From a virus: 28,829 bases of DNA. The stretch is taken from the IMG/VR virus record IMGVR_UViG_3300042691_010136, positions 1 to 28,829 of that record; one strand, 5' to 3'. A model generated the notes under the pieces. The model ran no database searches and was not told the DNA's origin. It was given only the letters and a program-made list of their open reading frames with translations. Below are positions 11,301 to 24,643 of the stretch, piece after piece (the stretch's first letter is position 1; each line of letters opens with the position of its first letter). A program made the position numbers and the translations under genes.

Positions 11301-14185
11301 ATCAGCCCGCCCGCGTTGCGGTTGTCCAGCGTCTCGCCTGCGCTGCCGACCCGGTAGACGACGAACGGCCTGCCCGGCTCCGGCGGGCGGCTGTCCAGCT
11401 CCTCCACGAATGCGAACAGGGCCGCGCGGGCCTCGTCCGGGGTCGCTTCCTGCCGCGCCAGCATCGGCGCCGTGTCGCCGTCGCCGTGCAGGCCCTGCAC
11501 CTGACGCGCCAACTTCGTCTCGCCGGGGTTGCCCCGCATCCATTCGGCCCGCGCCTCGCGCTTGGCGATCTCGCCGGTCAGGATCGCGTCCACCACGTCG
11601 CGGCTCGGATCGCGCGGCGTATCATCGGCCGGACCCCGGTAGCCCTGCTGCGTCAGCTTCTCGCGGACGCCGAAGAAGAACTCGCGGATGCGATCGACAA
11701 TGCCGCGCGCCTCGATCTGCGGCAGGGCGTCCGCCGGAACCTCGTTCTTGACCACCGAGTCGACAAAGTGGGCGGCGGCCTCCTCGTCGATGATCTCGTC
11801 GATGTTGCTCTGCGGACCGTAGGCGTCCCGGTACAGCGTCTCGCGAGCCTTATCGAACACGCCCGTATCGCGGGCGGCTTTCGCCAGGAGAGCCACTTCC
11901 TCCGGCGCGATCAGGCCCACCCGACGCAGCGCGTGGACGACCTCGTGCGCGATCGTCGCGCGCGGGTTTTCAGCGGCGGCGGCGATCCAGATCGTATCGC
12001 CGTCCGAAATCCCCTCGATACCCTCGCCCCGCTTGGCGGCTTCGAGCGCCATGCGCGCCTGCAGCCGCTCCCGCTCGGACGTGGCCGCCTGATACTTGCG
12101 CAGCGCCGTCTGGAACTTCACCGCGTTGCCCGCGCGCACCTGTGCCCGCAACGTCGGCGGCAGATCGTCCAGGGTGTCGAAGGACCGGATGGTCGTCCCG
12201 CGCGGGGCGGCAGGCGTCAGCTCTGCAATCGCCGCCTCGATCACCTGCGCCCGGGCCATCGAGGCAGCACGCCCCTCGGGCGTCGCGACCGCGTCAATCA
12301 CCTGCTGGGGGGCCACATCCTGCCCGGCAGCGGCCAGCTCCTCGCGCATCTTCGCTTGCAGCGCCTGGACCTGTGCCTTGGCCTCGGCCCCGTAGGGGTC
12401 ATCGATCAGGCGCGGCGAATTGGCCGCCTGCGACACCGGCCCCGGCACAGCGTCCGGCACCTTGACATAGTCCGGCGAGCGCAGCAGCTCGGCCAGCATG
12501 GCGCGAGCCTCATCCGGCCCCACCGGCCGCCGCCGGACGAGATCCCCGATCGCCCGGACCTGCATTTCCGGGTCGACGAACTCCGACACCATGGCCCCGA
12601 TCTCCGGGGACGCCTCGCCCCGGCGCACCACGTCGAGGGCTTCATCGGTCAGTTTGGACAGATTGCGGGCCGTGCGCACGCCGGGCGCGCTCAGATCCAT
12701 GTCGGCCGTCAGGAAGGCCGGGTCGTCGCGCAGCTTCTGGGCATCCGCGACCGGGTTGCGGCCGAAGGTGTCGATGGCCCGCATCTGGGCTTCGAGATCC
12801 GCGACCCGGGCCGCGATCTCCGGCGTGTCGCCGCTCTCGCGCAGCCGCGCGATCTCCTGCTGCAGCTTTTTGTAATTGCCTTCCGCGATTGCGTCGGTGT
12901 CGATGCGGCGGGGCATCGGCTCGAAATCCGGGTCGGCCGCATGGCGCAGCCCCTGCGTGATGGCCGCCGCGTGATCGGCATCGGCGATCGTATCCTTGGG
13001 CTTGATGGCCAGCGCCTCGTCGGCGATCGCCGTCTCGACCGTGCGGCGCAGCACCGGGTCGACGGCCGCTTCCCGTTCGAGAACCTTCTGCAGCGCGGCC
13101 GTGTCGCCGTTCATCGCGCGCGTGGCCACAGAGGCCGGGATGGCCCCCTCCTTGATCCCCAGCGCCTTCAGGATCTCGATCTGGGCCGCCTCGGCGGTTT
13201 CGGGGTTGCCCGCGCGCTGCAGCAGCTCGGGATCGATCGGCGGGGCAGGAGGCGGCTCGGCCGAACCCAGATCAAGCCCACCAGCTTCCGGCGCCCGTCC
13301 TGCCCCGCCAGGGCGATAGCCGACGACGATGCCATCGCGCACGACCGGGTCGAACCCGAAATTGCGGCGGCCTGCGCGCCACAGCCCTCGGCCAGCAATA
13401 TCCACGCCCGCACCGAACGCCCCCGCGATCGCCAAGCTCTTGGCCATTTCCGGCAGGCCGTAGTTGTTGCCGATGCGGTTCTGGTAGGCCGCGATCGACG
13501 GCTCCATCAGCGCCTGCGTGCCGATGTTGATGCCCGCCGCCTTGGCGCCCGCGATCAGCAGGCCCTTGGCTCCCAGGCCAGCGCCGAACCCGAACGGGAT
13601 CGACATATAGAAGGCCGGGTCGACGATCTGCGTCCCCATCGCGCCCGCGCCATAGGCGAACCACTCCGGAATGCCCTGTCGCGAGCGCTGCCACACGTCG
13701 GCGGCTTCCGCGCTCGACTCCAGCGCCAGCCCCTTGCCCTGCTCCTCGAAGGTCGCCTTGGGCAGAAACGCATCGCGCTGATCGGGAAACTTCTCGGCCA
13801 GCTTCTCGGCCCGTGCCCGCCACTCCTGTTCCGCCCAGCGGTCGCGGATGAACGGCATGTAGCCCAGCTCGCCGCCGTCGTTGCGGTAGGTGTCGAAATC
13901 CGCCCGGGCGCGCGCACGGTCCTCGTCGCTCATCCAGTCTTCGCCGAGCGAAATCCCCGGGTTGAACAGCTCCTCGCCGGTGATGCCCTTGATCCGCTTG
14001 TTGGCGTCGTCGTAGGCCGTATAGCGGTTGATGTTGTCGGAGATCCCCAGGCCGATCGAATTGCGCAGGCCCTCGACCCACGTCGAGCGGACAACGTCCT
14101 TCATGCCCGTCATGTCCTCCGGATCGGGCTCCGGGATGGGGGCATACGTGTTCTCGTCGGTCAGCTCGGGCTTCTTCCAATACAC
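5393..14185 (-). CDS. Giant polyvalent ejection protein: zincin, ADP-ribosyltransferase and zeta-toxin kinase modules
   Basis: A 2930-residue product on a GTG start (14185) behind GAGG. Regions in order: hydrophobic N-terminal stretches (about 185-230 and 245-268); helical, acidic linkers; zincin metallopeptidase HEVVH at 747-751 with candidate third ligand Glu801 or Glu802; a weak ADP-ribosyltransferase-like stretch (about 937-1060); a clear polyvalent-type ADP-ribosyltransferase (about 1146-1405) with His1149 in FHGSPH and Tyr1177 in GHGLYFAE; a further C-terminal half-like copy (1433-1550); a zeta-toxin kinase (about 1700-1900) with Walker A GGGGASGKGT at 1731-1740, Asp1759/Asp1761 in LDPD, and ILDRTL; then a roughly 1000-residue C-terminal region with membrane-like segments near 2500-2525 and 2747-2770. 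By position after gp14-like and gp15-like genes it corresponds to T7 gp16, the channel protein ejected with DNA. Delivery of the enzymes into the host is inference; so are their targets. Confidence 0.88.
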   Translation of the reverse strand: MYWKKPELTDENTYAPIPEPDPEDMTGMKDVVRSTWVEGLRNSIGLGISDNINRYTAYDDANKRIKGITGEELFNPGISLGEDWMSDEDRARARADFDTYRNDGGELGYMPFIRDRWAEQEWRARAEKLAEKFPDQRDAFLPKATFEEQGKGLALESSAEAADVWQRSRQGIPEWFAYGAGAMGTQIVDPAFYMSIPFGFGAGLGAKGLLIAGAKAAGINIGTQALMEPSIAAYQNRIGNNYGLPEMAKSLAIAGAFGAGVDIAGRGLWRAGRRNFGFDPVVRDGIVVGYRPGGAGRAPEAGGLDLGSAEPPPAPPIDPELLQRAGNPETAEAAQIEILKALGIKEGAIPASVATRAMNGDTAALQKVLEREAAVDPVLRRTVETAIADEALAIKPKDTIADADHAAAITQGLRHAADPDFEPMPRRIDTDAIAEGNYKKLQQEIARLRESGDTPEIAARVADLEAQMRAIDTFGRNPVADAQKLRDDPAFLTADMDLSAPGVRTARNLSKLTDEALDVVRRGEASPEIGAMVSEFVDPEMQVRAIGDLVRRRPVGPDEARAMLAELLRSPDYVKVPDAVPGPVSQAANSPRLIDDPYGAEAKAQVQALQAKMREELAAAGQDVAPQQVIDAVATPEGRAASMARAQVIEAAIAELTPAAPRGTTIRSFDTLDDLPPTLRAQVRAGNAVKFQTALRKYQAATSERERLQARMALEAAKRGEGIEGISDGDTIWIAAAAENPRATIAHEVVHALRRVGLIAPEEVALLAKAARDTGVFDKARETLYRDAYGPQSNIDEIIDEEAAAHFVDSVVKNEVPADALPQIEARGIVDRIREFFFGVREKLTQQGYRGPADDTPRDPSRDVVDAILTGEIAKREARAEWMRGNPGETKLARQVQGLHGDGDTAPMLARQEATPDEARAALFAFVEELDSRPPEPGRPFVVYRVGSAGETLDNRNAGGLMAVADILQRNDDFEAAFATEANTITAYEVTVDEPVGPYVGYTGGKPQDGTASTTVGYTNARGSAALSFPAGGKWKARTLGSVAVEDARAALERFQEYPIRNFDEAGSGLGSEAIAKALIDAGIIDPSRLTRLPGHPALFDFEVAQSGFKAAAAKRSAEGVELPGGVKVHGIPLFSMRDDGPRGIRAFHGSPHSFDKFSLDHIGSGEGAQAYGHGLYFAENDDVARQYLKKLADADATPGWFRNDAGDVDMTDVPSGLGWLRQDRRENLSNAQLVQAAEQELARAQSVINTQLRDVQTRKAQDVLDYVKSNPSFRFDWNPATGRMYEVNIKADPDQFLDWDKPLSQQSEKAKAALQPTIDRTMESIKLARYDTVPTGEPAFIKKFREGVETGNILARDLYFRDKPEVATAKLREAGIPGIKYLDGVSRGKGQGTKNYVIFDDNLIEIVAIDGQPVGPRFKFGDDPVDRTFMAKQKAGAGVYLSARADHAGHGLTAGGESVLIDADPNRTMAWDRWRQPDEARRAIDAVRAEQGMRSGPFQAGKDFYRSLSRKLGSDEAATQVLAEAGLQGHTYSSNGYRNTVLYDPALARPDPRAIEVVSRETPAEPSMVEQMRSYLAANDTGPVFERDPDGAITYVMQGGERYAISRDDQGRVAGLLPTEVDEGFAREIMQRVTKGMKPGEMSVVARIMENAGLEGPELSPQQMFEDAQLDAAYFGMDPPSRAIPDDDPIMQPRDTDTSAERKVIRDQLIEQRFAGKAPAQGQKVAIVMGGGGASGKGTVLKELRKQGLITGEYVELDPDSFKTGDKTEGWEGIPEYWPIVDRGDSRAANVTHEESSLLFKAAMRRGMEGGYNMILDRTLGTPTKAIAELQMLRDAGYEIRLIGVTVDPATAIKRAVERAKGLEKRYVPLNPLLEAHKGFSQGFEAYVKYADSVVLYDTNGPKPTPIARGRGSNLDVLDEKAYTNFARKAQLNEKADTLRQIQSGNWPDMERVLGRPDDLTGVVGRGPEGARSATEGSQPGRAQDSADLADEGLTPAQQGYMGPLYAMRDERGRVKPGAKQRVRDLQQDFAEIAADFSKQPDGKAPLLPDFEALQRKRATLLNGTAVEAGIDDMMKYKSPRGQNDIAVGFLRMHESLGVHQAPFMDLKIQRDTITKESLGRMGSVMWELRKGAISGDLRRVKNKAVRTRMENMMREAAGEKTGDAVAAQMAKAWLDVAEYLRQRFNAAGGAIGKLSGWYAPQFHDAERLLRAGREAWVGHLIRDGVLDRARMLDRQGKPLTEQALRDLLRDIWETITTDGANKAEIGDHFGKGALYKRHAEHRVLHFKNADSYLAYTKEFGGADPYSMMLGHISMMSRDIASMERFGANPEVVRERLKNHIMQDARMSRTARSLYDDLSDLVSDLKKQMGSIATPADAAIAKIGKIHARLDEIRGKPRYNAEREKLYTDLFKANEELSAALMPGSANPATAPLVQEIIALTEEMDDIARAYSVMSRNPIERAQRLIGRADEIWKLYAGQTNVPVDGNIAGATSGLRNWISSSMLVFAPMSAVTDQATGLAARAFIGMPVTRQLGSFVKAFTKQDRQFALRAQVGLDQAMNAFAVSQRFMGIANTAHVTGYIADRTHALSGLAPMTQAAKIGFASDFMSWMADLAKTKRWSSLDLWVRQMMDRHGFTEADFAALKTVTPDTYRGVPMMTKPAIEKAVGTDVAERYMRMLLREQAMAVLEPTLQGRTAFISESKPGTVMGEMSRSMAMLKSFPTSYMMLILGRFHNQWLAGRAFSTNTIAAGAAILVGGVLLGALAMQMKALGKGQDPLPMDDHKFWVRAFLQSGGLGIFGDFVANNINRQGGSLAQTLAGPLASEAQLLTNLTLGNLLEYGQGEPTNAGRELTNYLRQRTPGAFVPWYIRTAYNRMVLDQLQEMLDPDAHKAMRRQIKNQKKLGGNEFYWRPGESSPERGPNLGAAFGQQ
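9497..9512. promoter_or_regulatory. parS: Perfect chromosomal-type parS (ParB-binding) palindrome
   Basis: The 16 bases TGTTTCACGTGAAACA form a perfect palindrome identical to the canonical bacterial chromosomal parS site bound by ParB/Spo0J. It lies inside the giant gene, encoding V1559-S-R-E-T1563 plus the last base of Val1558, in a linker just after the last ADP-ribosyltransferase-like module. The codons used (GTT, TCA, CGT, GAA, ACA) are A/T-ending in a gene that prefers G/C-ending ones. A random 16-mer match in 28.8 kb has an expectation near 7 in a million under equal base use. Whether ParB binds it is untested. No parA or parB gene is in the window. Confidence 0.8.
9960..10650. other. 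Lower-GC block inside the giant gene (ADP-ribosyltransferase module)
   Basis: Hand-counted 60-base lines here give about 52-57% G+C, against 67% in a line from the same gene at 12541-12600. The block coincides with the main ADP-ribosyltransferase module. Long antisense open frames, which shadow the rest of the gene, disappear here. This fits recent import of the module, though the reading frame stays intact at both ends. Confidence 0.65.
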
Positions 14186-14193
14186 CTATGGCC

Positions 14194-17100
14194 TCACTTC
14201 CAGAACGCGGACGGGTAGCGCGCCTTCAGGGCTGGCGACAGCTTGTCCAGATCGAGGACGAACAGTTGCCCGCCCCCCTGCTTCATGGAGGCCGCCACGT
14301 CGCCGGTCGTGATCTCGTCGGGGCTCTGCTTCGGCGCGGCCGCCGTCATCAGAAAACGGTCCTGCCCCGGCTTGCCCGGCTCGTCGTGCGAGATCGCGTA
14401 CTGCCGGGGGCCGACCTGGACGAACCGGCCCCGCGACAGCGCGCGCAGGATGGGCATCGGAGTGCCGTACCTGTCGGCCGGGACGGGGTGCCCGACCTCG
14501 ACCAGATCCGTGTCGCGGATGCCATCGAGCACCGTGTTGAACATATCCTGCCGAATGTCGGACGGGATCTGAACGGCGTTGCCGGTGTCGCTGGCATTCC
14601 AGCCCGCCCCGCTCTGCGCCATCACGCCGCCGAACACCGCGCCCTTGGCATCCTTGCGCTGGCCCAGCGCGAGGGCGACCGACTCGCGGAACAGCTCGGC
14701 ATTGTAGTCGGCCGGATCTTCGACACGGGCCTCGTAGATCGCCTTCGCCGACGCCATGATCTCATCGGTCCGTCTGGCATCGCCAGGAAACAGGTTCAGC
14801 GCCACTTTCTTGTAGTCGGCCTGCAGCTCGGTTTTCTCGAACTTCGGCGGCCCTTGGTAGTTCTCATCCTTGCGCCGCGCGACCGTCTCGGCAATGTCGT
14901 CGACCGCCTGCGTGTCGCCGTCCGTCGTCATCAGATATCCCGCCCGGACCAGCTCCGGGTTTTTCGGCGCGATCTCGGCAATGGCGGCGGGCATGTCCTC
15001 GCCGAACGCCTCGTACATGAAGCCCAGCATTTGCGTGGTCTGGGAGCCGCCCGCCAGGATTGCACCCTCCAGCTTCTTCTTTTCCTCGGGGTCAAAAAAT
15101 GTTCCGTACTGCTCGCCGTAGGTCTGCTGGACGACCTTGCGCTGCTCGGCCCGCGCGGTCAGCATTTTCGGCGACAGCGTCTCTAGGTCAATCTCGCTCT
15201 TGCCCGGGAGCACGCCCGCCTCGACCGCGTAGGAATACGGGTCGTTGCTCAGAGCTTCCGCGCCGCGCTTGGCCTGCTTCTCGACCGCCTCGACCAGCGC
15301 CATCCGCTCCGGCGTAGCCCCGCCCGCTGCGATCTGTGCCCGCATCCCCGTCGCGATCCGGCCGACAGCCTCCGGTGCCATCGCCTTCAGGCCGTGCCGA
15401 TATTCCTGCGTTTGTAGCGCGGCCTGAAAACGGGCCTTCTGCTCCGGCGTGCCGGATTTCTCGACGCGCAGCCGGGTCGCTTCTTTTTCTTCATCGGGCA
15501 GGGAGACGCCATCCCCGGCCACGCCCTCGGCGCGCTGAATGAGCCCATCCAACTGTGCCGCTGCCGCCTTGCGCAGCGACGGCAATTGCTCGGCAATCCC
15601 CTCGATCGCGTAGGACCGGATCGAGGGCTTTTTCCAGCGCGGCGTTGCCGGAGCGGGCGGGGCGGTCCCGCCGCTCGCATCCGCCGTCTGTGTCGGGGCC
15701 GGGCCGGGGATGGCGTTTTCGCCGCGCTCGCCCGCATCAGCCTGCGCTTGTCCAGCCACCGCCTCGCTGGGGATCTTGCCCTGCTCCGGCGTTGCTGTGC
15801 TGCCCGGCTTGGTTAGGCCGTAGAACGAGGTGAATGAGCGTTCGGCCACGGGCTTGGGAGCCTCGGGCTGCGGGGCGGACTGCGCCGGGGCAGCCTCAGC
15901 CACGGGCTGACCAGCCTTGCCCATGCGGCCGGAGTAGTATCCCTCCATATCCGCGATCGACGTCGATCCGAGTCGCTTGGCCTGCGGTGCCGTCGTGACC
16001 GGCGTTTTCGTGTCGCCCTGCGCCAGCCGCTTGATCCACTCGCCATTCGGCGCGAACTGGAACGCCTGCAGGATGGCCGCTTGGCGGGCCGGGGGCAGCG
16101 TCGAAAGATCGACGCCAGCCGCCTGCATCTTCTCCGAAAACTTATAGTGATCGAGCCACTTGCCGTAGAAGGCCGCCTGCTCGGCTTGGCTCATCTTTTG
16201 ATATTCGGCTTTCGAGACGCCCATTTCGGCCAGCGTGTCGGGGCCAATTTGCGACAGGCCCATGTAGCTGCCCGTGCGCGTCTTCGGATTCCACCCCGAC
16301 TCCATGCTGAAGATTTCGCCCACAGCGCGCGGGCTCACCCCGATCTTGCCCGCCACGGCCACGGCGTTCTCGACAGCCTTCGGATCGGCATCCTTCGGGG
16401 CGCCAATGTCGGCAGCCGACCCTGGACCGCCGAGCGCCATCTGCTGCTGGCCCGTGCCCGCATACTTAGCATAATAGCTGTCGCCCTTGGCGTAGTTACC
16501 GCCGTAGCGCTTGCCGCCCTCGCGCGCCTCGACCGGCTCGATGTGCCAGTCCTCGTGCCCCAGCGGGAACGTCAGGCCGAACTTCTTGGCGTTGGCGTGC
16601 GCCCACTTGACGGACTCTGTGCGCTTGCCGCCGAGCCCGGCGCCGCGATCCTGGAACTGCAGATCGACCGCCTCGCCAGAGTTGTGCGATGACCCGCCGG
16701 GCGGCGCCACCCACTTGCGAGCGGCGGCCGGTGAGCCGTATTTCTTGACGGCGTTCTTCCACAGCGCGGCCTGACGCTCGGGCGAGCGATAGCCGGACAC
16801 GACACGGATATCGTGACCCTCGTCTTCCGCCGCTGCCAGGAAGGCACCCAGACGGTCCTTCGTTGCCGGATGGAGATCCTTGACGTCGCCGACGCGCTGC
16901 TCGTAGCCCGGCGCCAGCTTCGCGGTCAGGAACTCGACCGGGTCAGCCGGACGGCTCGACTGCTTCTCCGGCGTGCCCAGCTCCGGCTTGATCGGTGGCG
17001 CGGGCTGCGCTCCCGGTGCGGCTCCTGCTCCCGGAGGAGCGCCTACGGCCGGAGCCTGTTCTGCAGGCGGCGGGTCGGCCTTGAGCTGATTGCCCCAATC

Positions 17101-17781
17101 CGTGACGATCTTCTCGGCCGCCTCCAGAGCTTTGCCGGGATCTTTGCCCGCTGCCTCCTGCAGCTTCTCCTTAACGGTGTCGCTGGCCTGCTTGCGGACC
17201 CACTCGCGCTGCTCCGGCGACGCGCCGGGGATGCGGTCGATCTGCTCGTCCAGGCGATCGACGGAGGCGATGAAGGCCGGGTCTTCCGGCGACAGGGTCG
17301 CGATCGTCCCCTTGAGCGTCGAGGCCGTGCTGTTGACCGTGCCCTTGATGGTTTCGTTGGTGCCGAACTCGGTCGCGCTGCCGTAGAGCGGCCCCTTGAG
17401 CCGTTCCGTCTGCAGCATGTAGCCCTGCCGGATCTTCGGATGGCCGGGCAGCTTCTCCTGATATTCCGCGCGCTTCTGCTCGTACCACTCCTGATACCCG
17501 GGACTGAACTCGGCCGGGCTCTGGTCGGGCGTGTAGGTGGCCTTGCGACGGTCCAGCTCGGCGCGCGCCTCGTTGTCGAACTGCAGCGTCGTCATCTGGG
17601 CTTGGAACTTCTGATCGTCGCTCGGCTCGCTCGCCGCCTCGAACGCGCCCTGCAGGCCGGAGATCGCGCCGCCCAGGCTCTGCAGCGCACGGCCGGGCCC
17701 CGACAACGCGTCGATCGGCATCGTCGGCTGGTTCTGCATTTGCAGTTGGCCGGTTTCTTGGGTGCGCGGAATAATCGGCAT
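14194..17781 (-). CDS. Ejection protein with M15 peptidase and lytic transglycosylase domains
   Basis: The 1195-residue product takes the place of T7 gp15/gp16 core proteins. Residues 1-235 are helical, followed by a Pro/Ala linker. Residues 282-418 form an M15-type D-Ala-D-Ala carboxypeptidase/endopeptidase-like domain. SGYRSPERQ is followed by the zinc motif SSHNSGEAVD with His366 and Asp373, then Glu410 and His413 in EDWHIEP. Residues 470-580 form a lytic transglycosylase-like domain with catalytic Glu494 in SMESGW and the substrate motif MGLSQIGPDT at 507-516. A second Pro/Ala linker (620-715) leads to a helical C-terminal half with no recognised fold. Expected role: local peptidoglycan opening during DNA entry. 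The ATG at 17781 lies 3 bases after the upstream stop. Both enzyme motifs are complete. The stop is 8 bases before the giant gene's GTG. Confidence 0.87.
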   Translation of the reverse strand: MPIIPRTQETGQLQMQNQPTMPIDALSGPGRALQSLGGAISGLQGAFEAASEPSDDQKFQAQMTTLQFDNEARAELDRRKATYTPDQSPAEFSPGYQEWYEQKRAEYQEKLPGHPKIRQGYMLQTERLKGPLYGSATEFGTNETIKGTVNSTASTLKGTIATLSPEDPAFIASVDRLDEQIDRIPGASPEQREWVRKQASDTVKEKLQEAAGKDPGKALEAAEKIVTDWGNQLKADPPPAEQAPAVGAPPGAGAAPGAQPAPPIKPELGTPEKQSSRPADPVEFLTAKLAPGYEQRVGDVKDLHPATKDRLGAFLAAAEDEGHDIRVVSGYRSPERQAALWKNAVKKYGSPAAARKWVAPPGGSSHNSGEAVDLQFQDRGAGLGGKRTESVKWAHANAKKFGLTFPLGHEDWHIEPVEAREGGKRYGGNYAKGDSYYAKYAGTGQQQMALGGPGSAADIGAPKDADPKAVENAVAVAGKIGVSPRAVGEIFSMESGWNPKTRTGSYMGLSQIGPDTLAEMGVSKAEYQKMSQAEQAAFYGKWLDHYKFSEKMQAAGVDLSTLPPARQAAILQAFQFAPNGEWIKRLAQGDTKTPVTTAPQAKRLGSTSIADMEGYYSGRMGKAGQPVAEAAPAQSAPQPEAPKPVAERSFTSFYGLTKPGSTATPEQGKIPSEAVAGQAQADAGERGENAIPGPAPTQTADASGGTAPPAPATPRWKKPSIRSYAIEGIAEQLPSLRKAAAAQLDGLIQRAEGVAGDGVSLPDEEKEATRLRVEKSGTPEQKARFQAALQTQEYRHGLKAMAPEAVGRIATGMRAQIAAGGATPERMALVEAVEKQAKRGAEALSNDPYSYAVEAGVLPGKSEIDLETLSPKMLTARAEQRKVVQQTYGEQYGTFFDPEEKKKLEGAILAGGSQTTQMLGFMYEAFGEDMPAAIAEIAPKNPELVRAGYLMTTDGDTQAVDDIAETVARRKDENYQGPPKFEKTELQADYKKVALNLFPGDARRTDEIMASAKAIYEARVEDPADYNAELFRESVALALGQRKDAKGAVFGGVMAQSGAGWNASDTGNAVQIPSDIRQDMFNTVLDGIRDTDLVEVGHPVPADRYGTPMPILRALSRGRFVQVGPRQYAISHDEPGKPGQDRFLMTAAAPKQSPDEITTGDVAASMKQGGGQLFVLDLDKLSPALKARYPSAFWK

Positions 17782-18269: not shown

Positions 18270-20987
18270 TCAGCCCACCGTTGAGATTTCAGCTATGATG
18301 GCGGTTATGAACAGGGGAAGCGGGTCGTCGTGCTCGATGCGGATCTGCGCCTCGCGGTCGTGATCCCCCTTGAAATCGCACTCGATCAGCCCGGAATAGA
18401 GCGGCGGCGTCGAACCCATCGGATCGGCCGGTGTCCGGTACTTGATCGGCTCCAGGTCGCCCGAATCGCCCGGCTGGCCGATCGTGCCCCCCAGGCTGTC
18501 CAGCACCCGCACGTAGACCTGAGAAATCCGCTTGTTGCGCGATTGGGCCGTCCCGGCCTGCGCGCCCGCTTCCAGGTCTTCCGTCTCCAAGATGCCGGTG
18601 TAGCCGTAGCCGATGTGAGCCTTCGTCGTGGCGCGCGCCAGCGTCAGGCTGCCCGTCGCCGAGACGGTGCCCTCTTCCACGTTGCCATTGTTCAGGATCT
18701 TCACGTCCTCCCCCCGGAGGTGCCATAGGCCCGTGATCGTCGACGTCGAAGCCCCCTCATACGTCAGGGACGAATCAAGCAGGACAGCATCTTCCTTATC
18801 ATGCAGAACTGATTCGTAGGGCGGCCGGAACACCTCCAGCGTCCGTACCGTGCCGCCGTTTACTGTCCTCTCCGCCTCGATCCAGACGTCGTCGCCGGAC
18901 GCGCCGGGGCAGACTGCCACGACCTTGGCCACCGCATCCGTGCCGCCGAGCCGGTGCCGCTGCCACGCGATCACCTCCTGCAGCCGCTCGTAGGTGCACA
19001 CCGCCATCTGGCCGTCGACGCGGGTCGCCCAGATCATCGGGTCGGGCTGCATGGTGTAGCCCATGCGGTTGATCCCCGAGCCGGTGACGTGCTCGGCAAA
19101 CACCGTCAGGTCCACCGAATTGAACACGTCGGCCGTGAAATCGTAGCTGAACTCGCGCAGCTTGCGGCTGGCATTGGCCGGTGAGCCGTTGCGCTGGGGA
19201 TACAGCACGGCCTCGTTGACCCGGACCGGCGGGCAGTCGCTCGCCCCGTAGGTCGTCTGCAGCAACATGCGCAGGTTCGACGGGGTCAGCGCCTCGTTCT
19301 GATTGCTCGCCGCGATGGCATACTCGCCCTGCGACGTGCCAGCCGTCAGCACGCGCCCGCCGGACAGCCACCGGATGACGTCGGCCAAGCCGGACGCGGC
19401 CCGGTAAACGATCGCGTGATCGTCCTCCTCGCCGTCCTCGAAGTTTTCAAACCGGCTCGACCGGCTGGCCCACACCACGGTCGGCTCGCTGTCCGACCCG
19501 GCCGCCCATAGCCGCTGCTCGAAGAACGCGCAGCACCGTGGGTAGCCCCGGTAGTCAGACCACGCGCCTTCCTCCCAGAACGACGTGCCCTGGCTCAAGA
19601 CGCTTTGCGGCATCTGGTAGCGAACGATCGTCGCGTAGGCGCTCGTTGCGGAGTTGACCGCCGTGATCTGCACAATGCAGTAGCCGGGATGCAGAAAGTT
19701 GGCGTCAAACGACGTATCCGTCGCCCCCTTGGTGCCGATCACCCGGACGACGCCGGTCGTGTGCTCCGGCACGCGGTTGATGTTCTTCCAGTCGTTGCGG
19801 CCGGTCCGGTTGGAAATGCCGTAGATGTAGCCGCCCGACGTGTAGACAAGGCCGTTCTGCAACGTGTTGTCCGTATTATCCCCGAATGTCGGACCGTTGA
19901 TGCCGGTGCCGTTGCCCGCCTCTTGCAGTCGGTACAGCGCCCCGACGTGGTCGGCACTGAACTCGCTCCACGACGTCGCGAGTTCAACCGACGCGCCCTT
20001 TTCGAGCGTGCTCCAGATCGTCTGCGCGAACGAGATCGTGCCGCCGGAGGTGTAGGCTGTAAACGCCGACGAGTTGACCGATATCGTCAGCGTGTTCGAC
20101 GTCACCGCCGTCACGTCATAGGCATTGCCATTGAGCTGCACCATGCCGCCGACGCCGGAGAACGACACCGTCGCCCCGACCGAGAACGCGTGCGCGCCGT
20201 TGGTTGTGATCACGCACGGATTGGCCCGCGTCGCCCCGGTCACGCCGATCGAGCGGACGGTGATCGTCATCACCTTTTCATCATCACCGTTGATCTGCCG
20301 GAACGGCCCCGTCGTGAACTCCACCGTCGTCAGCGTCCACGAGGTATTCGACACCCGCGACAGCTTGCGGATCGGATGGTTCTTGTGCGTGATATACATC
20401 ACGTCGTTATACTGAGCGACCGACAGCTCCTGCAGCTCGTCGGCAGCATAGGTCGTCGAGACGATGATCAGCTCGTTGACCGTGCCGCCCGACGTGTAGG
20501 TCGTGTAGGAGGTGGTGTTGATCCCAGACAGCTCGAAGGTGTTGGTTGTCTTGTTGGCGACCGTCACGATGCGGTTGTTCAATTCCACCATGCCGCCGAT
20601 CGAGCGCAGCAGCACCTTGTCGCCGTTCTCAAGGCCGTGGGCCGCCGCTGTCACCACGCCGGGGCTGGCCTTCGTGACCCCGGTAATCGTGACCGCCGCC
20701 TGCGTGACGAGCCCCCGGTCCTTGGCGATCCAGATGTAGCCCGGCCCGAACAGGAGCATGTAGCTGTCCTCGGTCGAATACTGGAACGGCCACAGGACGT
20801 GCTCATCGGCGGGCAGCTCGGCGACGAACTGCGTTCCCGACCGCTTGCGCGCGCCGCCGTGCACCACGATCTGCATGTTTTCGACGGCACGCAGGCCGTT
20901 GCGCTGCTTGGCGACGTCCGGGCGGCCGTCCAGGCGGGGAGAAACCTCGCCGCCGGTCATGTTGACGAGCGCGTGCTGAACCTTCAT
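18270..20987 (-). CDS. Tail nozzle / tail tubular protein B (gp12-like)
   Basis: The 905-residue product starts MKVQHALVNMTGGEVSPRLD and GRPDVAKQRNGLRAVENM, then GGARKRSGTQFV, the hallmark N-terminus of podovirus tail tubular protein B, which forms the hexameric nozzle of the short tail. Two FCCH-like beta modules are inserted at about residues 100-170 and 245-320. Both contain the same GGMV-x-LN and YTSGGT motifs, so one arose by duplication. A central region has SRSSRFENFEDGEEDDHAI and GLADVIRWLSGGRVLTAGT, also typical of the family. The start overlaps the adaptor stop as ATGA. It partners with the adaptor just upstream and with fibres encoded downstream. Confidence 0.88.
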   Translation of the reverse strand: MKVQHALVNMTGGEVSPRLDGRPDVAKQRNGLRAVENMQIVVHGGARKRSGTQFVAELPADEHVLWPFQYSTEDSYMLLFGPGYIWIAKDRGLVTQAAVTITGVTKASPGVVTAAAHGLENGDKVLLRSIGGMVELNNRIVTVANKTTNTFELSGINTTSYTTYTSGGTVNELIIVSTTYAADELQELSVAQYNDVMYITHKNHPIRKLSRVSNTSWTLTTVEFTTGPFRQINGDDEKVMTITVRSIGVTGATRANPCVITTNGAHAFSVGATVSFSGVGGMVQLNGNAYDVTAVTSNTLTISVNSSAFTAYTSGGTISFAQTIWSTLEKGASVELATSWSEFSADHVGALYRLQEAGNGTGINGPTFGDNTDNTLQNGLVYTSGGYIYGISNRTGRNDWKNINRVPEHTTGVVRVIGTKGATDTSFDANFLHPGYCIVQITAVNSATSAYATIVRYQMPQSVLSQGTSFWEEGAWSDYRGYPRCCAFFEQRLWAAGSDSEPTVVWASRSSRFENFEDGEEDDHAIVYRAASGLADVIRWLSGGRVLTAGTSQGEYAIAASNQNEALTPSNLRMLLQTTYGASDCPPVRVNEAVLYPQRNGSPANASRKLREFSYDFTADVFNSVDLTVFAEHVTGSGINRMGYTMQPDPMIWATRVDGQMAVCTYERLQEVIAWQRHRLGGTDAVAKVVAVCPGASGDDVWIEAERTVNGGTVRTLEVFRPPYESVLHDKEDAVLLDSSLTYEGASTSTITGLWHLRGEDVKILNNGNVEEGTVSATGSLTLARATTKAHIGYGYTGILETEDLEAGAQAGTAQSRNKRISQVYVRVLDSLGGTIGQPGDSGDLEPIKYRTPADPMGSTPPLYSGLIECDFKGDHDREAQIRIEHDDPLPLFITAIIAEISTVG

Positions 20988-21649
20988 GTGCGGGCCAGCA
21001 GGTAGGCGTCGGTGTTGATGATCTCGCGCGCCGAGCCTTCCTGCGCGTCGACGGACCGGGCCTCCGACAGCTTGGCCGCGTAGAGGTCCATGAGCGTTTT
21101 GGTCACGCTCTGGTTATCGGTCATCGCGATCGCGATCTCGGCCGCCAGCCGGGCCGACAGGGCATCGACGAACAGGGCGTCGTACTGCGCGACGTCCGTG
21201 ATCCGGGCGATGTATTCGATCTTCAGGGCGCTTTCGTTGCACAAGAGCGCGCGGACGTCGGTCCCGTTGATCCGCACCGATTCGATCCGGTACTCGATCG
21301 CCATCGGCGAGATCCCGTGCATCCCGGGGAAGCCATAGACCGCCGTGCTCGCGAACCCGACCGCCTCGTAGTCCGTCCGGATCACCTTGAGGCAATAGGG
21401 CTCGGTCGGGAGCGCGTAGGCGTAATCGAACTCGAACGCGGGCGTGAACACGAGCTGCGCCAGGGCCACCCGCCGGATCGCGAAATTCCACGGATGGGCC
21501 CGCAGCACCACGTCGCGCAGGACGGGATAGTGCAACCGGCAGCGGTCGCCACCCTTGCCCCGCTCCGTCTCGGCCGCCATGGGCTCGTGCCCGATGCGGG
21601 TCAGGGCGAGGTTGTAGATATCGAGGACCGAGGTGACGACGCCGCTCAT
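20984..21649 (-). CDS. Tail adaptor / tail tubular protein A (gp11-like)
   Basis: The 221-residue product begins with a helical segment carrying LDIYNLALTRIGHEPM, then HYPVLRDVVLRAHPWNFAIRR and LPTEPYCLKVIRTD. These are characteristic stretches of the gp11-like adaptor family: ALxxIG near the N-terminus, HPWNFA, and a LP-x-D/E-x-L/Y-C-L-x-V-I motif. The protein forms the ring between portal and nozzle. It is coupled at both ends by 4-base ATGA overlaps, to the 77-residue gene upstream and the nozzle gene downstream. Length is close to the T7 protein (196 residues). No unusual features were seen. Confidence 0.87.
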   Translation of the reverse strand: MSGVVTSVLDIYNLALTRIGHEPMAAETERGKGGDRCRLHYPVLRDVVLRAHPWNFAIRRVALAQLVFTPAFEFDYAYALPTEPYCLKVIRTDYEAVGFASTAVYGFPGMHGISPMAIEYRIESVRINGTDVRALLCNESALKIEYIARITDVAQYDALFVDALSARLAAEIAIAMTDNQSVTKTLMDLYAAKLSEARSVDAQEGSAREIINTDAYLLART

Positions 21650-21879
21650 GTTGGCAAGATCCCCTGTGTGCGCAGTGCCGCCAGCAGCGTGTTCAGTGTC
21701 GTGCGCGCCTGAGTGTCCACCGTGTCGCCCCCGCTCACGTCAGCAATCGGGGTCGCATACTCAAGATCGCTGATCTGCGCGCGCGTGATCGTCGTGGACT
21801 GTACGACCAGCGCGGTTTCTATCCGCTGCTTGTCGGCAGCACGGGCGGCCCGCAGCCGCTCCCAGCGTCGAATACCCAT
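21646..21879 (-). CDS. Small virion-type protein of unknown function
   Basis: The 77-residue product has a basic N-terminus (MGIRRWERLRAARAAD) and a C-terminal segment DVSGGDTVDTQARTTLNTLL ending in ALRTQGILPT. This C-terminal pattern, an acidic turn followed by an A-R-x-x-x-N-x-L-L-A-x-L-R helix and a short hydrophobic end, recurs at the ends of small phage head-fibre or decoration-like proteins. No function is established. It lies 3 bases after the glycosyltransferase stop and overlaps the tail adaptor start by 4 bases, so it belongs to the same transcription unit. Confidence 0.6.
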   Translation of the reverse strand: MGIRRWERLRAARAADKQRIETALVVQSTTITRAQISDLEYATPIADVSGGDTVDTQARTTLNTLLAALRTQGILPT

Positions 21880-21882
21880 GGT

Positions 21883-22590
21883 TCACTCCGCCGCTTCGCG
21901 CTGCAGGATCTCACTCACGGGCAGGACTTCGGCATAGCAACCGGAAAACGCCTTCTGCCCGATATGCTTGAAGTGCAGGAGCGTGTCGGCAAAGATCTGC
22001 CCGCCGATCGCCCGCCACTTGCGGCAGAACGAGAAATCTTCGCCCCAGATCGTGTTGATCGACGGATCGTCGGGGTCCGGCGCCAGATCGAACCAGAACA
22101 GCGCATGGGCCTGCTTGTTGGGCAGATCATAGTCGCGGTAGGCCAGATCCGGATACGAGGCGACCATCCGCTCCAGGCACGACCGCGTCATGCGCAGGAA
22201 GCCGGTCGGGACCAGCTCCATTTCCAAGAGACCCGTGACGGGATCGAACGGCGCCCCCGGCTTGCGGCGGCACGGAAAGACCAGCGTCTCCTCGCGCTTG
22301 GGATAGAGCCCGGCCACGACCTCGCACTTGTGCGACAGGAGCCGGTTGACGGCCCCCTCCTCCCACACAACATCATCGTCGAGCATGATCAGGTCGGTGT
22401 AATCCGAGGCCAGAAACTTGGCCACGAAGGCGTTGCGCGTCTTGGGCAGGATGCTGTCGCCGACCGTGTAGAGGATCTTGTGGGGAATGCGCGCCTTGTC
22501 GAACCCCCGCTGCATTTCCAGGAGCGAGAAGGACGTCTCCGCCTGCGGCCGGTCCCGCATCGGCATTCCGATCATCACCTTCTGCGTCAT
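21883..22590 (-). CDS. GT-A family glycosyltransferase
   Basis: The 235-residue product has the features of a GT-A (GT2-like) nucleotide-sugar transferase: N-terminal strand VMIGMPMRD, a core LIMLDDDVVW with Asp71-73 as the metal/nucleotide-sugar DxD site, the acceptor-side VPTGFLRM at 127-134, and GEDFSFCRKWRAIGG at 183-197 with Glu184/Asp185 as likely catalytic residues. A final LLHFKHIG supplies a candidate metal-binding His. There is no membrane helix, so it should act in the cytoplasm on a protein or soluble acceptor. It overlaps the methyltransferase stop as ATGA, so the two are co-translated. The acceptor could be the capsid, cement or fibre protein, or a host molecule; the sequence does not decide. 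Confidence 0.8.
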   Translation of the reverse strand: MTQKVMIGMPMRDRPQAETSFSLLEMQRGFDKARIPHKILYTVGDSILPKTRNAFVAKFLASDYTDLIMLDDDVVWEEGAVNRLLSHKCEVVAGLYPKREETLVFPCRRKPGAPFDPVTGLLEMELVPTGFLRMTRSCLERMVASYPDLAYRDYDLPNKQAHALFWFDLAPDPDDPSINTIWGEDFSFCRKWRAIGGQIFADTLLHFKHIGQKAFSGCYAEVLPVSEILQREAAE

Positions 22591-23111
22591 GCCGTCCTCG
22601 CGGGCTTATGGGCCTTGAGCCCATATTCAAACTGTCGTTCGGCCGTGATCTTGATGTGGAACGGCTCGAAATCCGCCTTGTAGACCGAGCGGTAATCCGT
22701 CATCGGCGACACGCCCACCTGCGCGGCGTACTGCGTCTGATCCAGGAACGTGATGATCTCCGGCCCGTACACGCGGCGGTGGCCGGGGTCCATCCAGGCC
22801 CACGGGCTCGACCAATGCGGACTGACACCGCAAAACACGCCGCCCGGCTTCAGGATGCGCCACCACTCGGACCACTCCTCGAAGAACGACTGCCAGCACC
22901 CCTGGCGGCCCAGGTGCTCCAGCACGTCATAGGCGTGGATCTCGTCGAAGGCGTCGTTGTCGAACGGCAGCGGCCGGTTTTCCAGATCCCAAACGACGTC
23001 GGGATTGTGGGCCTCGAACATATCGAGGGTGACCAGATGGTCCCACGCATCGCGGCCCGGCGGCGCCAGCTTCTTAATGCGCGATTGACCGGCCCCGACC
23101 AGCAATTCCAT
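22587..23111 (-). CDS. Class I SAM-dependent methyltransferase
   Basis: The 174-residue product is a compact Rossmann-type methyltransferase of the Methyltransf_11 kind. Visible motifs are an N-terminal LLVGAGQS (short motif I, residues 3-10), Asp30 in TLDM for the ribose, DLENRPLPFDNDAFDEIHA (42-60), YDVLEHL (61-67) and LKPGGVF (87-93). Motif I starts right at the N-terminus, so the usual leading helix is missing. The target is not recognisable, and the DPPY/NPPY motifs of DNA adenine or cytosine N4 methylases are absent. The gene follows a terminator-like hairpin and is coupled to the glycosyltransferase. That pairing suggests methylation of a sugar or glycosylated product, as in other surface-modification pairs. 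This is inference. Confidence 0.8.
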   Translation of the reverse strand: MELLVGAGQSRIKKLAPPGRDAWDHLVTLDMFEAHNPDVVWDLENRPLPFDNDAFDEIHAYDVLEHLGRQGCWQSFFEEWSEWWRILKPGGVFCGVSPHWSSPWAWMDPGHRRVYGPEIITFLDQTQYAAQVGVSPMTDYRSVYKADFEPFHIKITAERQFEYGLKAHKPARTA

Positions 23112-23119
23112 GCACGCCC

Positions 23120-23161
23120 CCGGTATGAGAAAGAGGCGGAGTTTTCAGCCCCGCCCCTCTT
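23120..23161 (-). terminator. Hairpin resembling an intrinsic terminator after the cement gene
   Basis: Arms at 23149-23161 and 23131-23141 pair as AAGAGG...CCTCTT plus CGG...CCG, with a 2-base bulge and a loop containing GAAAA. On the minus strand the 3' arm runs into CTCTTTCTCAT, a short T-rich tail. It lies between the cement gene stop and the methyltransferase start, so it would lower, probably not abolish, transcription into the following genes. There is no long T-run, so efficiency is uncertain. Confidence 0.55.
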
Positions 23162-23175
23162 GCGTCTTGGCCCGC

Positions 23176-23682
23176 TTAGTCGCAGGCGTAGTCGATCTCG
23201 ACCGTGATCGTGCCCGCGCCCGACGACAGATGCACCGAGCCCTCGATCACGACCTTGATATCGAGGTCGCATTTGGGATCGTTGGTCTGGCCGTTGACGA
23301 ACTCGTACAGGCGCTTGCCCCACAGCGACCGATCGGACAGCAAGTCCTTCGTGCCAGCCGTGGAAGCGACGATCGCCGTGTTGATCGCGTCGGCGTCGTT
23401 GGTGATGTAGCTGTAGGAGCCGGTGTTATAGACACCGATCCCCAGAGCCGCCGTTGTGGCGCCGAGCGCGTCGTGCGAGATCTTGGACGACCCGAAGATG
23501 CGCGCGTTGCTCGGCAGCCGAGCCACCAGATACGTCGACGTTGCCGAATCGGCAGCGGACGTTTCCAGCGTCTCGACCCATTTCTTCATTCGACCGCCGC
23601 CCTCGCCAGCATCCGCCAGCACCGGGGGGGTCGATACGAGGCCGGTCATGATCCGGCTACCGTATGACGTGACTACAGCCAT
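23176..23682 (-). CDS. Probable capsid cement/decoration protein (Bbp16-like by position)
   Basis: The 168-residue product lies directly after the major capsid gene and has the strong binding site AAGGAGA six bases before its ATG, implying high expression. The sequence is beta-rich and Ser/Thr/Ala-heavy (SAADSATSTYLVARLPSN, GIGVYNTGSYSYI) and ends in a strand-rich KVVIEGSVHLSSG and TITVEIDYACD. In phage BPP-1 the gene after the capsid gene encodes the jelly-roll cement protein that clamps capsomers, and this product has a similar length and composition. No motif is diagnostic, so the call is by synteny. It is also a candidate acceptor for the glycosyltransferase encoded just downstream. Confidence 0.65.
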   Translation of the reverse strand: MAVVTSYGSRIMTGLVSTPPVLADAGEGGGRMKKWVETLETSAADSATSTYLVARLPSNARIFGSSKISHDALGATTAALGIGVYNTGSYSYITNDADAINTAIVASTAGTKDLLSDRSLWGKRLYEFVNGQTNDPKCDLDIKVVIEGSVHLSSGAGTITVEIDYACD

Positions 23683-23731: not shown

Positions 23732-24643
23732 TTAGGCGTCAGTGGTCGGCGAGGCGCCCGGATCGCACTCGATGTAGCCCACGCGGGCTTCTTCGAGGCG
23801 CGTGGCGCCGATGCTCATCGACGCAAACACCTGCGTCGCGTAGTTCTTGTCGGGCCTTTCGGTGATTTTGGTGCTGATGTCCTTGCCGATGCCGAGAGCG
23901 ATGCCGCCCTTGGCCCAGAACAGCACCTTGTCGTCGGAGTTGGCGTCGACCCCGATGCGGTTACACGGGATGATGGTGAACCCCATGTACCGGCTGACCT
24001 GACCCTCGACGAGCGGCTTGACCACGTTGTAGTCGTGGCTCGACAGCTTCTCGTCCTTCAGGAGCGAGGAGATCTGCCGCGCGTTGGGAACTAGAAACTT
24101 TTCCTCGTCGGCATCGACGTCGTTGGTGCCGAGCAGCCGTGCGGCCGAAATCAGCTTGGCGACGTTGAGGCCCGTATCGGCGGCCGACACACCCGGCCAG
24201 ACCGTCTGGACGTCGACGATCATGTTGGTGTCGAACGACGTCGACGTGCCGCCAGCCTCGCCCGTGTAGGCCGTGCCGTCAGCCGCCGCGATAATCACGT
24301 CGTCCATCGACCGGCCCATCGCCATGGCGGCGGCCTGCGCGTACTTCGAGGCCGGGTCGATCAACATGCGGATCAGATCCTCGTCATCGACGAGGTCTGC
24401 CCAATCGTAATCGGACAGAGAGAGCCGCCTGCGGGCGTGCGGGGTATCCATGCGCGGCGTGTCGGCGTGCCGAGACGTGCGCTGGCGGGCGGAGGTCGAA
24501 CCGAGCTGGTCGATATACTTGTTCTTGCCGGTGACCTGCTCCATTTCCACGGCAGAGCGGAGCTTGGAGCCCTTTTGCTGCGTCAGGTGGTACACGTTGT
24601 TTTTATACATTTCCACCATAGCGGTGGTGATCTGGACGCTCAT
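23732..24643 (-). CDS. Major capsid protein (BPP-1-type, HK97 fold expected)
   Basis: The 303-residue product begins MSVQITTAMVEMYKNNVYHL and has QQKGSKLRSAVEMEQVTGKN, RRRLSLSDYDWADLVDDED, MAMGRSMDDVIIAAADGTAY and NARQISSLLKDEKLSSHDYN. It ends with GFTIIPCNRI, then ISTKITERPDKNYATQVFASM and SIGATRLEEARVGYIE. These stretches are typical of the phage capsid group that includes BPP-1 Bbp17. It follows the scaffold gene, as in T7-like order, and precedes the cement gene. The start at 24643 is fixed by a near-ideal binding site, AAAGGAG seven bases upstream. No protease domain is present here, so maturation probably does not involve a fused protease. Confidence 0.88.
   Translation of the reverse strand: MSVQITTAMVEMYKNNVYHLTQQKGSKLRSAVEMEQVTGKNKYIDQLGSTSARQRTSRHADTPRMDTPHARRRLSLSDYDWADLVDDEDLIRMLIDPASKYAQAAAMAMGRSMDDVIIAAADGTAYTGEAGGTSTSFDTNMIVDVQTVWPGVSAADTGLNVAKLISAARLLGTNDVDADEEKFLVPNARQISSLLKDEKLSSHDYNVVKPLVEGQVSRYMGFTIIPCNRIGVDANSDDKVLFWAKGGIALGIGKDISTKITERPDKNYATQVFASMSIGATRLEEARVGYIECDPGASPTTDA

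What the first reader, a model, noticed from the sequence alone, without database searches (positions are those of the whole stretch)
21883..23111. Coupled methyltransferase and glycosyltransferase between head and tail genes
In an otherwise strictly structural block, two enzyme genes joined by ATGA follow the capsid and cement genes behind a terminator-like hairpin. Co-translation suggests one pathway, for example O-methylated sugars placed on the capsid, cement or fibre protein. A decorated virion could evade host surface recognition or change adhesion.
Basis: inference. Interest (0 to 1): 0.58.

Follow-up and report, generated by a model that had tools for sequence, protein, structure and literature searches.

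The report
Phage sugar-and-methyl cassette beside capsid genes
A virus of bacteria carries, between its head and tail genes, two coupled enzyme genes that probably attach a methylated sugar to one of its own coat proteins, and related viruses seem to gain and lose such enzymes together with a particular coat protein.

Summary
On the minus strand a 174-aa class I methyltransferase (MT, 22587-23111) and a 235-aa GT-A glycosyltransferase (GT, 21883-22590) overlap by ATGA, between capsid/cement and tail-tube genes of a T7-like phage. The GT has no Pfam match. Its family profile finds STIV A197, an archaeal-virus glycosyltransferase, in the PDB (E 1.6e-9), and its model matches A197 best (Z 18.1). 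DxD, ED and the last His are invariant in 29 of 29 sequences. MT-GT adjacency recurs between capsid and connector genes in unrelated phages, in both gene orders. In T7-like relatives the cement type tracks GT/MT presence (60-77% identity among carriers, 22-54% between carriers and non-carriers), the tail-tube gene barely. In P22-like phages a small Thr-rich protein and a GT come and go together (24 both, 4 one only, 45 neither; 9:0 tree-independent pairs). Best reading: the GT glycosylates a virion surface protein, most likely cement, and the MT caps the sugar, as PBCV-1 A064R does. Glycosylation of this virion, the acceptor and the O-methylation are inferred, not shown. The MT family also occurs without GT in replication blocks, so its sugar role is the weaker half. 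New variant of a known kind.

The parts
22587..23111 (-). methyltransferase (MT), 174 aa, class I SAM-dependent, Methyltransf_11
   Evidence: PF08241 24.5 bits, cut-off 21.2; model pLDDT 95.6; class I fold matches, best Z 13.8
21883..22590 (-). glycosyltransferase (GT), 235 aa, GT-A fold, A197-like, phrog_1574
   Evidence: phrog_1574 E 1.4e-14; profile E 1.6e-9 to 2c0n; model pLDDT 94.2; Z 18.1 to 2c0n
22587..22590 (-). ATGA overlap of MT stop and GT start (translational coupling inferred)
   Evidence: sequence
23176..23682 (-). cement-type protein, 168 aa; candidate acceptor
   Evidence: position after the capsid gene; no Pfam or PHROG hit; identity tracks GT/MT presence among relatives
23130..23160 (-). 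12-bp hairpin between cement and MT, terminator-like with a short U tract
   Evidence: fold; not listed by the terminator scan
21646..21879 (-). 77-aa protein after the GT, head-fibre-like C-terminus (weak)
   Evidence: phrog_1954 E 0.007, phrog_6994 E 0.09; relatives occur without GT
23732..24643 (-). major capsid protein (context)
   Evidence: PF19821 E 7.6e-87
20984..21649 (-). tail tubular A-type protein (context)
   Evidence: phrog_394 E 5.4e-48

Best explanation
The pair is a late-expressed virion-glycosylation cassette. The soluble GT-A enzyme uses a host sugar nucleotide (donor unknown) to put a sugar on a phage surface protein in the cytoplasm during assembly; the most likely acceptor here is the cement protein encoded just upstream. 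The co-translated methyltransferase then methylates that sugar, probably on oxygen, and so caps it. Shown: both genes and their overlap, the A197-like GT-A identity with an intact catalytic set, the recurrent MT-GT pairing beside capsid genes, and co-inheritance of the GT with a neighbouring virion protein type. Inferred: that the virion is glycosylated, which protein is the acceptor, that the MT acts on the glycan, and what the glycan is for. Parts: GT acts on a virion protein about 0.7; cement as acceptor about 0.4; MT acts on the glycan about 0.5.
For: GT homologous to STIV A197 by profile (E 1.6e-9) and top by structure (Z 18.1), with R52, D71, D73, G130, E184, D185 and H209 invariant in 29 of 29 sequences. 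A GT lies in 33 of 83 MT loci, on either side of the MT, often overlapping it by 4 nt. Structural neighbours dominate where a GT is present. In P22-like phages GT and a small virion-type protein come and go together: 24 both, 1 GT only, 3 small protein only, 45 neither; tree-independent pairs 9 to 0, p 0.004. In the window's own group cement type tracks GT/MT (mutual cement identity 60-77% among 4 carriers, 22-54% carrier to non-carrier; label statistic rank 6 of 1820). No membrane segment in GT or MT. Precedent: PBCV-1 A064R, GT domains plus an MT domain that O-methylates the capsid glycan (PMC9614988 passages).
Against: No chemistry. 51 of 81 MT loci have no GT within 1.5 kb and their neighbours are mostly replication genes, so the MT is not tied to sugars as a family. 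L195 has cement and GT but no MT. The small-protein association is in P22-like relatives; the window lacks that protein, and only 4 of the 20 P22-like loci with an A197-like GT have this MT. Cement-GT co-inheritance could follow from adjacency alone; non-carriers also share cement types, up to 88%. The fold of the MT names no substrate.
Confidence: 0.52

Rival explanations
1. The GT glycosylates a virion protein, but the MT is a separate enzyme that methylates protein side chains, nucleic acid or a small molecule and only shares the insertion slot.
For: MT relatives at 45-55% identity sit without GT among replication and recombination genes; L195 keeps the GT without the MT; MT fold is generic.
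Against: 4-nt overlaps in both gene orders; the window's MT clade is 10 of 11 GT-adjacent; GT proteins with a probable C-terminal MT domain of another type exist in the same slot (L006, L151; below Pfam cut-offs).
Confidence: 0.2
2. GT and MT modify host surface glycans (lipopolysaccharide or capsule) during infection, for superinfection exclusion or to help release of progeny.
For: Small soluble GT-A enzymes also act on cell-surface glycans (established knowledge); some fold matches are of that kind, such as TarP and WrtF.
Against: Position inside the late structural block; co-inheritance with virion proteins; no GtrA-type gene in 8 records, some of them fragments; no membrane segment; no integrase in the window or its T7-like carriers.
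Confidence: 0.14
3. The pair hypermodifies phage DNA.
For: Phage glycosyltransferases that modify DNA are known (PMC12619734 passages).
Against: No thymidylate synthase or hydroxymethylase family member (PF00303) in 8 records, some of them fragments; structural-block location.
Confidence: 0.04
4. The pair is passing cargo in a variable slot and has no selected role in the virion.
For: 45 of 80 fetched T7-like loci have cement followed directly by the tail-tube gene, and close relatives hold different inserts.
Against: Catalytic residues invariant across divergent GTs; repeated joint gain and loss with a virion protein in P22-like phages, with two GT types.
Confidence: 0.08

Closest known systems
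A197 glycosyltransferase of Sulfolobus turreted icosahedral virus (PDB 2c0n)
   Same: GT-A fold, DxD and GED motifs aligned, best PDB match by profile and by structure; virus-encoded; suspected to glycosylate the capsid protein (PMC10551542 passages)
   Different: Archaeal virus with another capsid type; no coupled methyltransferase named in the passages read; about 21% identity
PBCV-1 A064R (with A061L)
   Same: Glycosyltransferase and methyltransferase of one virus work on the capsid glycan; methyl capping of the last sugar shown in vitro (PMC9614988 passages); domain 1 is among the fold matches of the GT
   Different: One fused protein with two GT domains, algal virus, N-glycan; here separate overlapping genes and unknown linkage
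Mycobacteriophage virion glycosylation (Che8, Corndog, Myrna)
   Same: Phage-encoded GTs glycosylate capsid and tail-tube proteins (PMC12363180 passages; original paper not held)
   Different: In a related F1 phage the GT genes lie near the 3' end of the genome (PMC11256854 passages), not between capsid and connector; no coupled methyltransferase named in the passages read
Collagen glycosyltransferases LH3 and ColGalT1, Mimivirus R699
   Same: GT-A domains that glycosylate protein side chains (recalled for the substrates); Z 15.2-17.8
   Different: Multidomain, 11-12% identity, hydroxylysine acceptors (recalled); fold likeness only

Membership tests
A197-like viral GT-A glycosyltransferases | GT-A fold closest to A197 | tested here: met
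   Z 18.1, rmsd 2.5, 163 aligned; tied within 1 with LH3
A197-like viral GT-A glycosyltransferases | sequence homology to A197 | tested here: met
   family profile E 1.6e-9, next hit 0.01
A197-like viral GT-A glycosyltransferases | DxD motif and catalytic Asp (A197 D151) | tested here: met
   D71, D73, E184, D185 invariant in 29 of 29; D185 aligns with A197 D151, counted back from the end of the alignment
A197-like viral GT-A glycosyltransferases | sugar transfer activity | not testable with these tools
   needs an assay; not settled for A197 either
Class I SAM methyltransferases (Methyltransf_11) | Pfam score over cut-off | tested here: met
   24.5 against 21.2 bits, profile positions 47-94 of 95 only
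Class I SAM methyltransferases (Methyltransf_11) | GxG motif I and Rossmann-type fold | tested here: met
   G6 and G8 invariant in 40 of 40; fold matches
Virion glycosylation system | glycan on a virion protein that depends on the GT | not testable with these tools
   needs MS of virions of wild type and deletion mutant
PBCV-1 A064R type | GT and MT fused in one polypeptide | tested here: not met
   separate overlapping genes here
Serotype-conversion Gtr systems | GtrA flippase (PF04138) | tested here: inconclusive
   0 of 8 records, several of them fragments
Serotype-conversion Gtr systems | polytopic membrane glycosyltransferase (recalled) | tested here: not met
   highest 19-residue hydropathy mean 0.72 for the GT
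DNA hypermodification | accompanying base hydroxymethylase (PF00303) | tested here: inconclusive
   0 of 8 records, several of them fragments

The most novel reading that the evidence does not exclude
Many tailed phages carry an 'acceptor plus glycosyltransferase' cassette just behind the capsid gene: a dedicated surface protein (a small Thr-rich protein in P22-like phages, a particular cement type in the window's T7-like group) that is gained and lost together with an A197-like or MptE-like GT, optionally extended by a methyltransferase, radical SAM-SPASM enzyme, GT4 enzyme or sugar-nucleotide epimerase. The window's version makes a methyl-capped glycan on its cement protein, with a GT homologous to that of an archaeal virus.
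Probability: 0.33. Interest if true: 0.72.

Novelty: new variant of a known kind. Interest (0 to 1): 0.52.

Why it matters
Virion glycosylation is considered rare in phages. If the co-inheritance is functional, it names the acceptor (a decoration-type protein) before any chemistry is done and predicts a large uncultured class of phages with glycosylated, sometimes methylated, heads. It also ties a family of unknown function (phrog_1574) to an archaeal virus glycosyltransferase whose own acceptor is still open.

Tried and rejected
Single-protein searches were weak: the MT had no match in 50,697 phage records; the GT scan of viral contigs gave none; GT and MT alone found no convincing PDB homologue. 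The GT alignment had no conserved stretch to scan with, so the MT alignment was used to gather loci.

Rejected: the window's 77-aa protein as the counterpart of the P22-like small protein (hhalign probability 0.5%), and as a GT-linked protein (relatives without GT in L196, L198-L200 and L204). The hairpin as a conserved regulatory part. Recent foreign origin from base composition: GC3 of MT 84.6 and GT 86.9 against cement 83.4 and capsid 86.8.

Rows dropped before counts: of 80 P22-like coat loci, 4 had no complete coat ORF, and 3 more with under 1.5 kb after the coat gene were left out of the 73. Of 81 T7-like loci including the window, 75 had capsid and cement, 44 remained after dereplication, 16 of these had capsid identity of at least 60% to the window. 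Of 146 MT relatives only the best 80 were fetched; L007 and the window were left out of the 81. The structural clusters were chosen by me after seeing GT-adjacent loci (27 of 30 against 0 of 51), so that contrast is biased. The PHROG tallies are only partly fairer: A9 held 60 of the 181 non-GT neighbour proteins listed, the nearest ones, near-identical loci left out by hand; A10 held 51 GT-side proteins, 50 picked by hand from the 145 plus one capsid protein of L014, with capsid and connector neighbours preferred over enzymes, so it leans structural.

Literature: 10 searches found no report of an A197-like phage GT paired with a methyltransferase beside capsid genes. Only open-licence papers are held; the papers cited were seen as listings or passages, none in full.

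Full report
WHAT IS THERE. On the minus strand of this 28,829-base IMG/VR virus record the order is portal (PF12236), scaffold-like, major capsid (PF19821), a 168-aa cement-type protein, MT, GT, a 77-aa protein, then tail tubular A (phrog_394) and B (phrog_376). MT (22587-23111) and GT (21883-22590) overlap by ATGA at 22587-22590. The hairpin at 23130-23160 exists but has a poor U tract, and the relatives L195, L205 and L210 have at most about 25 nt there.

WHAT THE GT IS. It has no Pfam match and only phrog_1574, unknown function. A family alignment of 29 sequences keeps R52, D71, D73, G130, E184, D185 and H209 in every row. The model is confident (pLDDT 94.2). As a profile the family finds A197 of Sulfolobus turreted icosahedral virus in the PDB with E 1.6e-9, far ahead of the next hit (0.01). 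In the structural re-alignment A197 is again first (Z 18.1, rmsd 2.5, 163 aligned, 21% identity), tied within 1 with LH3, followed by Mnn9, Mimivirus R699 and ColGalT1. Foldseek's own order puts LH3 first and also lists PBCV-1 A064R domain 1. A review states that A197 is essential, that D151E delays replication and that STIV's capsid protein is glycosylated, with donor and acceptor unknown (PMC10551542 passages); A197 D151 aligns with the phage D185 (counted back from the end of the alignment).

WHAT THE MT IS. A short class I methyltransferase (PF08241 just over cut-off; model pLDDT 95.6) whose fold matches many class I enzymes about equally (best Z 13.8), so the fold does not name a substrate. 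An alignment scan gave 146 relatives in viral contigs, of which 80 were fetched. Among bacterial and archaeal genome contigs 24 stretches matched, only 2 of them at 51% identity and the rest at 25-40% over parts: within the reach of these patterns it is mainly a viral family.

THE PAIR RECURS BESIDE CAPSID GENES. A GT of this family lies in 33 of 83 loci with an MT, upstream or downstream, often with 4-nt overlaps. With a 1.5-kb limit, and L007 and the window left out, it is 30 of 81. Of 51 neighbour proteins in such loci, 13 match one major head family and 10 a head-tail adaptor (that list was picked by hand and leans structural). Neighbours of MTs without GT match mostly exonucleases, polymerases, helicase and primase, with a few terminase and portal hits (60 proteins). 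On the MT tree the window sits in a clade of 11 (SH-aLRT 97), 10 of them GT-adjacent; overall the label changes 9 times. Extra genes in such blocks are a radical SAM-SPASM enzyme, a GT4-type enzyme and an NAD-dependent epimerase.

CO-INHERITANCE IN P22-LIKE RELATIVES. Between coat gene and GT often lies a 66-97-aa Thr-rich protein with an FYGATPV motif. From a coat-protein scan, 73 of 80 loci were usable: 24 had both the small protein and a GT (A197-like or MptE-like), 1 GT only, 3 small protein only, 45 neither (Fisher 5.8e-15, loci not independent). With the A197-like GT alone and 76 loci it was 19, 1, 9 and 47. Pairs on separate starred branches of the coat tree: 9 same direction, 0 opposite, 3 no difference; p 0.004. 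The enzyme start overlaps or lies within 10 nt of the small gene in 20 of 24 (starts chosen among in-frame start codons). Of the 5 MptE-like enzymes scanned, 4 matched PF01973 and only L162 passed the cut-off, so their GT role is an inference. Only 4 of the 20 loci with an A197-like GT also had this MT.

CO-INHERITANCE IN THE WINDOW'S OWN GROUP. In 80 loci with a related capsid, 45 have cement followed directly by the tail-tube gene (counted from the listing). L205 and its copies L207-L209, L210 and the window have cement-MT-GT; L195 has cement-GT without MT. Among 16 dereplicated lineages with capsid at least 60% identical to the window, 4 carry GT/MT. Their mutual cement identity is 60-77%, carriers against non-carriers 22-54%; capsid means are 74 and 68, tail-tube means 54 and 46. 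The label statistic ranked 6 of 1820. Some non-carriers also share cement types at up to 88%, so cement simply comes in types, one of which goes with GT/MT; physical adjacency alone could do this. In non-carriers the same slot can hold spike- or fibre-like genes (L211, L214).

MECHANISM. The reading that fits best is cytoplasmic glycosylation of a surface protein during assembly, followed by methylation of the sugar. The strongest precedent for GT plus MT on a capsid glycan is PBCV-1 A064R with A061L, where the methyl transfers were shown in vitro (PMC9614988 passages). Mycobacteriophages glycosylate capsid and tail-tube proteins with their own GTs (PMC12363180 and PMC11256854 passages; the original paper is not held). 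In this phage the acceptor, the sugar and the methylation are not shown. DNA modification and serotype conversion are less likely: no PF00303 or PF04138 in 8 records, some of them fragments, no membrane segment, and no integrase in the window or its T7-like carriers (the records of L016 and L203 have one).

VERDICT. Real, and more than chance; an inferred virion-glycosylation cassette of a known general kind with new features: the coupled MT, the A197-like GT in tailed phages beside capsid genes, and co-inheritance with a surface protein.

Noticed in passing
window 5393-14185 (-): A 2930-aa protein, by position an ejected internal virion protein, holds a zeta-toxin (UDP-sugar kinase type) domain, PF06414 E 3.5e-30 at residues 1719-1900, and a sub-threshold ART-PolyVal match.
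   Followed up: no
window 14194-17781 (-): The 1195-aa protein carries a VanY D-Ala-D-Ala carboxypeptidase domain (PF02557 E 6.5e-21).
   Followed up: no
L115-L194, downstream of the coat gene: A small Thr-rich protein with an FYGATPV motif is gained and lost together with a glycosyltransferase behind the P22-like coat gene.
   Followed up: yes
L117:5579-6319, L120:5476-6213, L144:5476-6180, L162:4036-4704: MptE-like proteins (PF01973; only L162 over the cut-off) take the GT's place directly after the small protein.
   Followed up: partly
L038:6534-7391 and its cluster (9 members, e.g. L041, L044, L063, L081): A radical SAM-SPASM enzyme sits next to the GT-MT pair in several capsid blocks.
   Followed up: no
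L014:4881-7489: A GT4-type glycosyltransferase and an NAD-dependent epimerase/dehydratase flank the MT in a capsid-connector block.
   Followed up: no
L037-L060, L066-L072: The same MT family, about 47-55% identical to the window's, sits without GT among RusA, ERF and PD-(D/E)XK nuclease genes; its role there is unexplained.
   Followed up: partly
L006:19962-21239, L151:5608-6876: Proteins of about 425 aa join the GT domain to a probable, different methyltransferase domain (weak Pfam matches).
   Followed up: partly
window 18270-20987 (-): The tail tubular B-type protein carries two stretches of the E1 FCCH domain family (PF16190, E 5.7e-26).
   Followed up: no
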